Below are positions 56,006 through 63,975 of a DNA stretch of 64,000 nt, piece after piece. Below the pieces are notes generated by a model that saw only the letters and a list, made by a program, of their open reading frames with translations, was not told the DNA's origin and did no database searches. A program made the position numbers and the translations under genes. Origin of the DNA: Streptomyces sp. NRRL F-5123 (lineage in GTDB: Bacteria; Actinomycetota; Actinomycetes; Streptomycetales; Streptomycetaceae); contig NZ_JOHY01000013.1 in NCBI RefSeq assembly GCF_000721495.1, positions 1 to 64,000 of the forward strand. The letters are read 5' to 3'. The stretch's first letter is position 1, and each line of letters starts with the position of its first letter.

Positions 56006-56761
56006 TTGTTGCTTCTCATCTCCCCGGACAGCGTCGAGGAGGCCCTCGACTGCGCGAAGGCGGCCGAGCATCTCGACATCGTGGACGTCAAGAAGCCCGA
56101 CGAGGGATCGCTCGGCGCGAACTTCCCGTGGGTGATCCGGGAGATCCGCGGCGCGGTCCCGGCCGGCACGCCGGTGTCCGCCACCGTGGGCGACGTACCG
56201 TACAAGCCCGGCACGGTGGCCCAGGCCGCGCTCGGCGCGGTGGTGTCCGGGGCGTCGTACATCAAGGTCGGCCTCTACGGGTGCACCACTCCCGACCAGG
56301 CCGTCGAGGTGATGCGCGGGGTGGTCCGGGCGGTGAAGGACTACCGGCCGGAGGCGTTCGTGGTCGCCTCGGGCTATGCCGACGCCCACCGGATCGGCTG
56401 CGTCAACCCGCTCGCCCTGCCGGACATCGCCCGCCGCTCCGGCTCCGACGCGGCCATGCTCGACACCGCGGTCAAGGACGGCAGCGGGCTGTTCGACCAC
56501 GTTCCGCCCGACGCCTGCGGGGAGTTCGTCCGGCTCGCCCACCAGGCGGGCCTGCTCGCGGCGCTCGCCGGCAGCGTCAAGGCCGGGGACCTCGGCGCGC
56601 TGACCCGGATCGGCACGGACATCGTGGGGGTGCGCGGCGCCGTCTGCGAGGGCGGCGACCGCAACACCGGCAGGATCCGGCCGCGCCTGGTGGCCGCCTT
56701 CCGGGCGGAGATGGACCGGCACGCCCAGCAGACCGCCGCCGGCGTCGCCGCTGCGGGCTGA
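56006..56761 (+). CDS. mfnB: MfnB-type (5-formylfuran-3-yl)methyl phosphate synthase
   Basis: The protein has 251 aa. MfnB condenses two glyceraldehyde-3-phosphate molecules to 4-(hydroxymethyl)-2-furancarboxaldehyde phosphate, the first step of methanofuran biosynthesis. The catalytic lysines known from the archaeal enzyme (27, 85, 155) are matched: DVKKPDEGSLGANFP near 28, SYIKVGLYG near 86 and DTAVKDGSG at 157. The start is TTG 56006, with AAAGGAG upstream and the product opening LLLLISPDSVEEAL like other MfnB proteins; the longer frame from 55922 has no support. The gene starts a run with aldehyde and alcohol dehydrogenase genes. Methanofuran itself is unlikely because no other methanofuran genes are present in the window. 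Confidence 0.88.
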   Translation: MLLLISPDSVEEALDCAKAAEHLDIVDVKKPDEGSLGANFPWVIREIRGAVPAGTPVSATVGDVPYKPGTVAQAALGAVVSGASYIKVGLYGCTTPDQAVEVMRGVVRAVKDYRPEAFVVASGYADAHRIGCVNPLALPDIARRSGSDAAMLDTAVKDGSGLFDHVPPDACGEFVRLAHQAGLLAALAGSVKAGDLGALTRIGTDIVGVRGAVCEGGDRNTGRIRPRLVAAFRAEMDRHAQQTAAGVAAAG

Positions 56762-56768
56762 CGCCGGC

Positions 56769-61717: not shown

Positions 61718-63088
61718 TCACCCGGCTGCCGGGCGCGCGGGCGTCGGCTTGACGCCCAGCGCACGCAGCGCCGGGCTGGTCATGAAGAGCAGGGCGCAGG
61801 CCACCAGGGTCCCGCCCAGCACGAGCAGCGCGCCCGTGCCGCCGAGGACCTGCGACAGCACACCGCCGAGCAGCGGGCTGAGCGGTGCCAGGCCGAGACT
61901 CACCACGCCCAGCAGCGACATGAGGCGTCCCATCATCGCCTCCGGCGTCTCCTCGGCCACGAGCACCTTCAGCGCCACGTTCAGCGCGGGAATGGCCACC
62001 ATCCCCGTGAGGAGCATTCCCGCCGGCCAGAACGCGCCGAGCGGTGCAGTCGCCGCGCACAGGGCGGCGCCGAAGGCGAACGCCACCGCCGTCATCAGCC
62101 GCCCGGGAGCCAGCAGTTGGCTGATCGGGGCGGAGAGGGCCGATCCGAGCAGTCCGCCCACCCCGGACGCGGCCAGCACCAGGCCGGTGACGGCCGAGTT
62201 GCCCCCCCGGTCGTGGACGACGGTGATGATGGGCAGCAACTGCGCGTTCACCACGAGGTTGATGAGAACAGAGAAGGCCAACGCGGCCCGGATGCCCGGG
62301 CGTTGCCACACCCAGCGGACCGCCTGCCCGACGTCGGCCCGCATCCCGCCGCCCCCCGGCGTCGGCTGTCGGGCCGCGGACCCCTCCGCCGCGTCTGGGG
62401 CACCCGGACGCCGGGGAACCCGGGCCAGCAGCAGACACACCAGGGAGACTGCGTAACTGAGCATGTCGGCCAGGAAGGGCAGGACGCGCGCCAGCCCGTA
62501 CAGCGCGCCGCCGAGCGGCGGTCCGGCCAGCAGGGCGGCGTGCCCGCGTGCCTCCTCCTGGGAGTAGGCGCCGAACAGCTGCTCCGCCGGGACGATCGCC
62601 CGCAGCGAGGCGGCGTGCGCGGGCCCGAAGAAGGCGTCCGCGGCGCCGCTGACCGCGGCCACGCCCAGCACCAGCCCGAAGGGCACGCCGGTACCCATCG
62701 AGAAGAGCGCCGCCACCAGGCCGCCGGTCGACACGACGCGTACGGCTTCGCAACTCAGCAGGATGCGGCGCCGGTCCAGGCGGTCCACCCACACCCCGGC
62801 CGGTATCGACGTCACGAGGTTCACCGCGATCCGGCAGGCTGCCGCAAAACCGGCCAGTGCCGGCTTCCCGGTGACCGCGAGCAGCAGCAGGGGCATGGCA
62901 ACATACGTCATGGACGAGCCGAGACCGGAGACCGCGCCGCCGATCCACATCATGCGGAAGCGGAAGTTGCGGCGCAGGGGTACCGGTGGCTCGGGTGCCG
63001 GGCCCCGGAGGTGGACGGGCCGGACGTCCTGCCCGCTGCCGCCCGCCCGCTCCTCGGCCGGTGTCGCTTCTTCGTGCACGGGGATCAC
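61718..63088 (-). CDS. MFS-type drug/metabolite exporter
   Basis: The protein has 456 aa, with twelve predicted membrane helices and the MFS motif A-like VWVDRLDRRRILL after helix 2. It resembles the multidrug/macrolide exporter branch (MefA/EntS-like). It is 20 bp from the convergent regulator. GTG 63088 forms a GTGA overlap with the upstream methyltransferase; GTG 63079 fits the GGAGAG site better. It probably exports the cluster product or another hydrophobic compound. Confidence 0.88.
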   Translation of the reverse strand: MIPVHEEATPAEERAGGSGQDVRPVHLRGPAPEPPVPLRRNFRFRMMWIGGAVSGLGSSMTYVAMPLLLLAVTGKPALAGFAAACRIAVNLVTSIPAGVWVDRLDRRRILLSCEAVRVVSTGGLVAALFSMGTGVPFGLVLGVAAVSGAADAFFGPAHAASLRAIVPAEQLFGAYSQEEARGHAALLAGPPLGGALYGLARVLPFLADMLSYAVSLVCLLLARVPRRPGAPDAAEGSAARQPTPGGGGMRADVGQAVRWVWQRPGIRAALAFSVLINLVVNAQLLPIITVVHDRGGNSAVTGLVLAASGVGGLLGSALSAPISQLLAPGRLMTAVAFAFGAALCAATAPLGAFWPAGMLLTGMVAIPALNVALKVLVAEETPEAMMGRLMSLLGVVSLGLAPLSPLLGGVLSQVLGGTGALLVLGGTLVACALLFMTSPALRALGVKPTPARPAAG

Positions 63089-63975
63089 CTCTCCGGTTCA
63101 CTCGACGGGCCGCCGGGCATCGCGGTGGGCAGCGGGTTACCCCGGCGCGCGTGCGCGACGACCCGCAGATAGGTGTGGCCCAGCGCGAAGGGCCCGGCGG
63201 CGCCGACGCGGTGCGCGTGCAGCAGCTCGCGGTACTCGTCGGCGAATTCCCGGTGCGCCGCGGGCGAGAGCCGGGGCTTCAGCGCCGCCGGGAGCCCGCC
63301 GGGCGCCTGCTGCCGCGTCCACATCTCCGCGAACGACGGATAGGGCCGGACGAGCCGCTCGCGGCTGGTCGCGATGCCGTCGCAGTACGGGCTGAGCAGC
63401 GCGGTGACCAGGGCCGGGTCACCCCAGCGCAGCGGGAAGGCGTAGGGCAGGGTGGGCGGATCGTACCGGGCCAGCAGTTCGTCGGTGCGGGCGTGCAGGG
63501 AGTCGGCGGTGTGCGCGGTGAAGGCGAACACCCCGCCGGGTGCCAGGACGCGGACGACCTCGCGGACGGCGGCGTCGGGATCAGCTGCATAGACCACGGC
63601 GAAGTTGCTCAGGACCTTGGTGAAGGCACCGCGACGGTACGGTAGGCGCTCGGCGTCGGCGACCGCCCAGGATGCGCGGCGGACGCGCGCCGCGCCGGCC
63701 CTTACCACGGCCTCGTTGAGGTCGCAGGCAACGGTCCGCGCTCCCGCGCGTGCGGCGGCCCGCGCGACGTTGCCGTCGCCCGCTCCGAGGTCGAGCGCCG
63801 TGTCGCCCGCGACGACGAGGGCGGCGCGTACCAGATCGCGTGCGGCCGGTTCCTGCACCCGCGCGGTCCCAGCCGCCACCCGGGCCCGGCCCACCTGCCG
63901 CTTCCACCGTGCGGCCTGCGGCGGGGTGAGGGGCGGTACGCGGGCGCCGGACGTCCGCGGGGCGGGCTCAGCCAT
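63085..63975 (-). CDS. Class I SAM-dependent methyltransferase
   Basis: The protein has 296 aa. The SAM motif ALDLGAGDGNVARAAAR, then VACDLNEAVVRAG and ADAERLPYRRGAFTKVLSNFAVVY, is the UbiE/COQ5-like pattern. ATG 63975 has AGAGGA upstream. It is coupled to the exporter gene by a 4-nt overlap, so the two are one operon. Substrate unknown; it could be a resistance or tailoring methyltransferase. Confidence 0.87.
   Translation of the reverse strand: MAEPAPRTSGARVPPLTPPQAARWKRQVGRARVAAGTARVQEPAARDLVRAALVVAGDTALDLGAGDGNVARAAARAGARTVACDLNEAVVRAGAARVRRASWAVADAERLPYRRGAFTKVLSNFAVVYAADPDAAVREVVRVLAPGGVFAFTAHTADSLHARTDELLARYDPPTLPYAFPLRWGDPALVTALLSPYCDGIATSRERLVRPYPSFAEMWTRQQAPGGLPAALKPRLSPAAHREFADEYRELLHAHRVGAAGPFALGHTYLRVVAHARRGNPLPTAMPGGPSSEPER

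What the first reader, a model, noticed from the sequence alone, without database searches (positions are those of the whole stretch)
56006..63975. Possible undescribed furan biosynthetic cluster built on MfnB
Seen: mfnB with all catalytic lysines, a 7-bp gap to an aldehyde dehydrogenase, a 10-bp overlap to a Zn alcohol dehydrogenase, a carboxyl/hydroxyl methyltransferase, a regulator, an MFS exporter and a second methyltransferase. Known: MfnB makes the phosphate of 4-(hydroxymethyl)-2-furaldehyde from two glyceraldehyde-3-phosphate. Inference: after phosphate loss, the two dehydrogenases could yield a 2,4-furandicarboxylate-type acid, which the methyltransferase esterifies. No methanofuran pathway partners are present. 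A furan signal or antibiotic made this way would be new as far as I know.
Basis: partly seen in the sequence, partly recalled or inferred. Interest (0 to 1): 0.8.

Follow-up and report, generated by a model that had tools for sequence, protein, structure and literature searches.

The report
Streptomyces four-gene furan-diester cassette
Many Streptomyces carry the same compact set of four genes, built around a furan-making enzyme best known from methane-producing archaea, and it probably makes a known volatile furan diester whose origin was left open when it was found.

Summary
The unit is a conserved leader of about 160 bp plus four genes, 55846-60330 (+): mfnB, aldehyde dehydrogenase (ALDH), aromatic-type alcohol dehydrogenase (ADH), LCM-family methyltransferase. 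It is complete in 88 of 97 distinct Streptomycetaceae loci (open frames in 86 of these) and in 12 of 14 further ones; the departures are ALDH loss (8), methyltransferase missing (1) or a contig end (2). The regulator, MFS protein and second methyltransferase have no homologue in 91 loci. MfnB keeps the catalytic residues checked and is 60% identical to the solved M. jannaschii enzyme. [quoted passage not shown] sahachiroi (PMC3778384), whose authors guessed a polyketide or pyruvate origin. MfnB explains its 2,4-substituted C6 skeleton directly. Against: I could not check that S. sahachiroi carries the cassette, the cassette has no phosphatase, and 8 loci lost the ALDH but keep the rest. My searches of the open paper library found no paper making this link.

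The parts
55846..56005 (+). conserved leader (promoter and/or 5' untranslated region) of the cassette, with a strongly conserved GATGATGAGC..ACCGCA block and a ribosome-binding site; limits approximate
   Evidence: mean identity 0.69, 0.68, 0.53 in successive 60-nt blocks upstream of the start, then 0.28 and 0.26 (shuffled 0.18-0.30; 300 random pairs from 97 upstream regions); block found once in own genome, 3 mismatches allowed; no Rfam match at gathering scores, only chance-level ones below; RNA structure not established
56006..56761 (+). [quoted passage not shown]
   Evidence: PF04476, NF002573 over cut-off; 59.9% identical to MJ1099 (solved, 4rc1/4u9p); D25/K27/K85/D151/K155 in 101 of 101 rows
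56769..58262 (+). aldehyde dehydrogenase (PF00171), up to 497 aa (most relatives start about 30 aa later), NCGQVCMA and ELGGN motifs present
   Evidence: lost or eroded in 8 of 97 loci
58253..59362 (+). zinc alcohol dehydrogenase, 369 aa, aromatic-alcohol type (nearest solved: 5tnx, then benzyl alcohol dehydrogenase 1f8f)
   Evidence: Cys/His motifs conserved
59419..60330 (+). LCM-family (PF04072 / TIGR00027) SAM methyltransferase, 303 aa, predicted carboxyl O-methyltransferase
   Evidence: predicted model matches ML2640/Rv0731c, then LCMT-1, PPM1 and TYW4; opposite orientation to mfnB in 14 of 87 complete loci other than the window

Best explanation
A self-contained biosynthetic cassette of Streptomycetaceae that also moves on plasmids and makes methyl ester(s) of furan-2,4-dicarboxylic acid, most likely dimethyl furan-2,4-dicarboxylate, a volatile diffusible metabolite. 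Steps: (1) MfnB condenses two glyceraldehyde-3-phosphate to (5-formylfuran-3-yl)methyl phosphate [known for the archaeal enzyme; here inferred from identity and residues]. (2) The phosphate is removed by a phosphatase not in the cassette [inferred]. (3) The ADH oxidises the 4-hydroxymethyl group, and the ALDH, or another ALDH of the cell, oxidises the aldehydes to carboxylates [inferred from families]. (4) The LCM-type enzyme methylates the carboxylates [inferred from family and fold]. The product leaves by diffusion, which fits the lack of a conserved exporter [inferred]. Control runs through the conserved leader rather than an adjacent regulator [inferred].
For: Four genes in one order, complete in 88 of 97 distinct loci (order in 88 of 88, open frames in 86 of 88) and 12 of 14 further ones, while 0 of 91 loci share the window's regulator, MFS protein or second methyltransferase. 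Pairwise distances of the four proteins correlate, r 0.74-0.82 over 60 loci, as expected for joint inheritance, though common descent alone would also give this. MfnB catalytic residues kept in 101 of 101 rows. The ADH's nearest solved enzymes include benzyl alcohol dehydrogenase; the methyltransferase model's best matches with a named function are LCMT-1, PPM1 and TYW4, carboxyl methyltransferases (TYW4 recalled). Dimethyl furan-2,4-dicarboxylate, C8H8O5, is a Streptomyces metabolite and microbial headspace compound (PMC3778384, main text read): its six skeleton carbons in the 2,4 pattern are what MfnB gives, and two carboxylates and two methyl esters are the chemistry of the other three genes. 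No MfnF or Fae match in the own genome.
Against: Not shown that S. sahachiroi carries the cassette (its genome was not reached). No phosphatase in the cassette. 8 of 97 loci have lost the ALDH but keep mfnB, ADH and methyltransferase (ADH frame broken in one, L022), and 1 of 14 extra loci, L142, lacks the methyltransferase, so other cellular enzymes step in or the product varies. Family and fold do not prove carboxyl rather than hydroxyl methylation; small-molecule O- and N-methyltransferases also appear lower in the same fold list. The PMC3778384 authors proposed other origins.
Confidence: 0.65

Rival explanations
1. The cassette makes a different MfnB-derived furan, for example methyl 4-(hydroxymethyl)furan-2-carboxylate, a mono-ester acid or an O-methyl ether, used as a signal or building block; the diester is made otherwise or only in some strains.
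For: ALDH loss in 8 of 97 loci with the methyltransferase kept suggests that full oxidation may not be needed everywhere; no phosphatase is fixed in the cassette; the ADH could also reduce.
Against: The own genome has 16 matches to the ALDH family, the cassette one included and some partial, so backup is available; the one Streptomyces 2,4-furan compound found in the papers is the diester.
Confidence: 0.22
2. A methanofuran-type cofactor or C1-pathway remnant.
For: MfnB is the first furan enzyme of methanofuran synthesis, and the window protein is closer to the archaeal one (59.9%) than to the proteobacterial one in L112 (40.0%).
Against: No MfnF (TIGR03123) or Fae (PF08714) match in the own genome, with M. 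jannaschii and M. acetivorans ringing among 14 controls. Other MfnB loci look different: in L112 mfnB lies with formylmethanofuran dehydrogenase subunit C, fhcD and DUF447/DUF6513 genes; in L114 with ATP-grasp and hydantoinase-type genes.
Confidence: 0.03
3. Detoxification or catabolism of furfurals, with MfnB recruited for another aldolase-type reaction.
For: ADH plus ALDH pairs are typical of aromatic and furan aldehyde breakdown (recalled family knowledge).
Against: MfnB keeps its catalytic residues and 0.896 mean pairwise identity over 60 loci, and a SAM methyltransferase is fixed in the set; neither is expected in a detoxification set.
Confidence: 0.06

Closest known systems
MfnB / MJ1099 4-HFC-P synthase of methanofuran biosynthesis
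   Same: 59.9% identity over 227 positions, same catalytic residues, solved structures 4rc1 and 4u9p
   Different: here followed by ALDH, ADH and a methyltransferase instead of methanofuran genes; in Streptomycetaceae; with its own conserved leader
Dimethyl furan-2,4-dicarboxylate of Streptomyces sahachiroi (PMC3778384)
   Same: the structure is what this four-gene chemistry would yield
   Different: published without genes; authors proposed a polyketide or pyruvate-dimer origin; cassette not shown in that strain
[quoted passage not shown]
   Same: Streptomyces furan carboxylates with a part from a C3 phosphate (PMC6604932, passages)
   Different: [quoted passage not shown] no MmfL-type (AfsA) domain among the 9 window proteins scanned
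SCO6440 (mfnB) of S. coelicolor
   Same: a Streptomyces mfnB, up-regulated in an abrB1/B2 mutant (PMC7581861, one passage)
   Different: used there as an RT-qPCR validation gene; its neighbours were not examined here

Membership tests
4-HFC-P synthase (MfnB) | curated profile match over cut-off | tested here: met
   NF002573 386.6 vs 341 bits; PF04476 263.3 vs 22.4 bits
4-HFC-P synthase (MfnB) | essential lysines and aspartates (Lys27 Schiff base: PMC6604932 passage; Lys155 catalytic: PMC11365854 passage; D25, K85, D151 recalled) | tested here: met
   D25, K27, K85, D151, K155 in 101 of 101 cassette rows, three genomes counted twice
[quoted passage not shown]
   needs purified protein
Methanofuran biosynthesis locus | MfnF partner in the genome | tested here: not met
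   TIGR03123 (taken as MfnF, recalled): 0 matches in own genome, 2 of 14 controls ring, both methanogens
Methanofuran biosynthesis locus | linked C1 enzyme Fae | tested here: not met
   PF08714: 0 matches in own genome, 2 of 14 controls ring, both methanogens
Methanofuran biosynthesis locus | MfnA, MfnC, MfnD, MfnE partners | not tested
   no search run
LCM carboxyl methyltransferase family | PF04072 match and LCM fold | tested here: met
   PF04072 E 2.2e-56; model of mean pLDDT 71.6 matches 6id6, 2ckd, then LCMT-1, PPM1, TYW4
LCM carboxyl methyltransferase family | methylates a carboxylate | not testable with these tools
   needs assay
Locus of dimethyl furan-2,4-dicarboxylate | present in the producer S. 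sahachiroi | not tested
   no S. sahachiroi record among the 80 named loci kept of 304; the rest were not visible
Methylenomycin-furan (MmfL) type furan locus | MmfL/AfsA-type synthase | tested here: not met
   no such domain in the 9 window proteins scanned

The most novel reading that the evidence does not exclude
An archaeal-type cofactor enzyme has become the engine of a widespread, plasmid-travelling cassette that makes an airborne furan diester signal in Streptomyces, switched by its own conserved leader (possibly an RNA or an operator sensing a metabolite), sometimes with an EF-hand calcium protein beside it.
Probability: 0.2. Interest if true: 0.8.

Novelty: new variant of a known kind. 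Interest (0 to 1): 0.63.

Why it matters
It offers a concrete gene set for a Streptomyces metabolite and headspace compound whose origin was left open in 2013, shows MfnB in a setting outside C1 metabolism, and supplies bacterial enzymes for making and esterifying 2,4-furandicarboxylate, a polymer monomer of current interest. One knockout or one heterologous expression would settle it. A cassette-type MfnB (E below 1e-76) is in 80 of 394 sampled genomes of the family, about one in five, so the compound or a close relative could be common in soil.

Tried and rejected
Methanofuran: disfavoured (different contexts in L112 and L114). Leader as structured RNA: RNAalifold on the full 97-row alignment gave no pairs; on 78 trimmed sequences -35.6 kcal/mol against 60 column shuffles of mean -31.5, sd 4.1, minimum -46.8; six single-sequence folds had z-scores from -1.84 to 0.04. 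One hairpin shows mild covariation, but I claim no structure. Leader as an Rfam family: none at gathering scores; five chance-level matches below. Anti-phage function of the methyltransferase or the regulator: no PADLOC match. Donor of an MfnB transfer: the tree of 23 rows has long branches (L112, L105, L115), so no direction is claimed. Other papers on the compound: PMC3778384 is the only one in the listings with it in the title; most other listed papers were not opened. In one search two terms with a space for the comma found nothing, not even PMC3778384, so that part of the search was blind. A search on TcmP-type carboxyl methyltransferases found 0 papers.

Full report
What is there. The window lies in a genome of 8.8 Mb in 250 contigs (G000 contig C13, 139 kb). 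Gene calling and Pfam/NCBIfam scans confirm mfnB, ALDH, zinc ADH and an LCM-type methyltransferase in one run on one strand, 56006-60330. The mfnB start is the TTG at 56006; among 97 upstream regions the start codon is TTG in 66, GTG in 30 and ATG in 1.

Is it a unit? I dropped three duplicates (L097, L100, L117), one locus cut by a contig end (L121) and four with non-cassette MfnB (L105, L112, L114, L115); L116, L122 and L124 have no MfnB match to the window protein. That leaves 97 loci including the window. 88 of 97 are complete by coverage (at least 0.85 of each protein at over 60% identity); all 88 have the same gene order and 86 have all four frames open, L025 and L119 having a broken ALDH frame. 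8 lack a full ALDH only, and 1 (L017) ends at a contig end. Because keeps the nearest relatives, I also fetched the 20 weakest strong family-wide hits not yet fetched: 14 were not duplicates, of which 12 are complete and open, 1 (L142) has no methyltransferase within about 5 kb downstream and 1 (L131) ends at a contig end. The methyltransferase is turned round in 14 of 87 complete loci other than the window. The window's regulator, MFS protein and second methyltransferase have no homologue in 91 loci; the upstream phosphoesterase has one in 2. Distances of the four proteins correlate (r 0.74-0.82, 60 loci). These loci are related by descent, so counts are not independent events.

Spread. PF04476 rings in 12 of 35 same-genus genomes, 86 of 394 in the family and 6 of 396 in the phylum. 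Of the 86, five have only weak matches (6.9e-9 to 1.3e-7) and one (G009) is divergent, leaving 80 at E below 1e-76. The six phylum hits are three of the same family, two other genomes over the cut-off and one below it. Of those two, L114 (G660) is in a methanofuran-like setting and L115 (G435) is near a contig end. In the plasmid collection 13 records match at 80-90%, 11 Streptomyces and 2 Streptantibioticus, several of them megaplasmids. I looked at four: three carry all four genes, one lacks the ALDH (L113). In a 70-kb circular plasmid the cassette lies about 2.6 kb from Tn3-family transposase genes. Patchy presence and plasmid carriage suggest horizontal spread.

The enzymes. MfnB is 59.9% identical to M. 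jannaschii MJ1099 over 227 positions, against 40.0% to the Azospirillum protein in L112. D25, K27, K85, D151 and K155 are invariant in 101 of 101 rows (three genomes appear twice). The ADH is nearest among solved structures to 5tnx and to benzyl alcohol dehydrogenase 1f8f. The methyltransferase is nearest to ML2640 and Rv0731c; its predicted model (mean pLDDT 71.6, 16 sequences) then matches LCMT-1, PPM1 and TYW4, with two uncharacterised proteins among them and small-molecule methyltransferases at lower TM-scores.

ALDH loss. In eight loci (L019, L022, L030, L053, L065, L074, L076, L113) the distance from mfnB to the ADH is 89-827 nt instead of about 1.4 kb. Six hold recognisable scraps of both ends of the ALDH, two none. 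S. cattleyicolor shows the same gap in two records (L113, L117). In these loci mfnB, ADH and methyltransferase are present at 0.93-1.0 coverage, with the ADH frame broken in L022. The own genome holds 16 matches to the ALDH family, the cassette one included and some partial, so backup is plausible. This is still the main strain on a strict four-gene reading.

The leader. Identity between random pairs is 0.69, 0.68 and 0.53 in the three 60-nt blocks upstream of the start and falls to 0.28 and 0.26 beyond about 180 nt; shuffled controls give 0.18-0.30 (97 upstream regions, nearly the same set as the 97 above: L121 is in, L054 is out). Its ATGATGAGC..ACCGCACGTGATCC block occurs once in the own genome, 3 mismatches allowed. 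It seems to travel with the cassette. Whether it acts as promoter, operator or RNA is open; tests for RNA structure were not convincing.

What it makes. PMC3778384 (main text read in two parts; supplement not read) reports dimethyl furan-2,4-dicarboxylate as the major metabolite of an S. sahachiroi aziA2 mutant, says it had been observed in microbial headspace, and proposes a polyketide or pyruvate-dimer origin. Its authors mention a candidate cluster with a pyruvate aldolase and a methyltransferase in their draft genome; whether this is the present cassette I cannot tell. MfnB gives a furan with one-carbon groups at positions 2 and 4, six carbons in all; an alcohol dehydrogenase, an aldehyde dehydrogenase and a carboxyl methyltransferase are what is needed to reach the diester, apart from a phosphatase. 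I regard this as the most likely product. My searches (open PMC papers only, most listed papers not opened) showed no paper that links mfnB to it. I found mfnB (SCO6440) of S. coelicolor as an RNA-seq validation gene (PMC7581861, one passage). Other papers: PMC6604932, PMC9088363, PMC11365854 and PMC2631018 in passages; PMC8498797 in a listing only.

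Noticed in passing
L002:8968-14126 (contig C13 63968-69126, running past the window end): Candidate RiPP locus: two 43-aa precursor-like peptides with near-identical leaders and C-termini TPWCGGCNISI / TPWCGICNVTT, a radical SAM/SPASM-like protein, and a 1144-aa frame with oligopeptidase-like and P450 parts.
   Followed up: no
within 1.6 kb of the cassette in 24 of 104 loci with an MfnB match (total), e.g. 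L016:13781-14311, L111:4824-5351; also 7 of 14 extra loci: An EF-hand calcium-binding protein gene often sits beside the cassette, on either side, on chromosomes and on plasmids; none was called next to the cassette in the window.
   Followed up: partly
L105:5781-10158: In G009 a divergent MfnB-like protein with K27 and K85 replaced by E and R lies beside UbiA-type, amino-acid-kinase-type, LuxR-type and aminotransferase genes: a second, different MfnB-like locus.
   Followed up: partly
L122:4915-6351: A 478-aa frame with a partial PF04476 domain whose Lys27 motif reads DSEDP; weak PF04476 matches of this size occur in six family genomes, this one included.
   Followed up: no
L114:1-10832: Another genome of the phylum (G660, 2.3 Mb, 88% complete) has MfnB with ATP-grasp and hydantoinase-type genes, resembling a methanofuran locus.
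   Followed up: partly
L111:1426-3376: Tn3-family transposase genes about 2.6 kb upstream of the cassette on a 70-kb circular Streptomyces plasmid.
   Followed up: no
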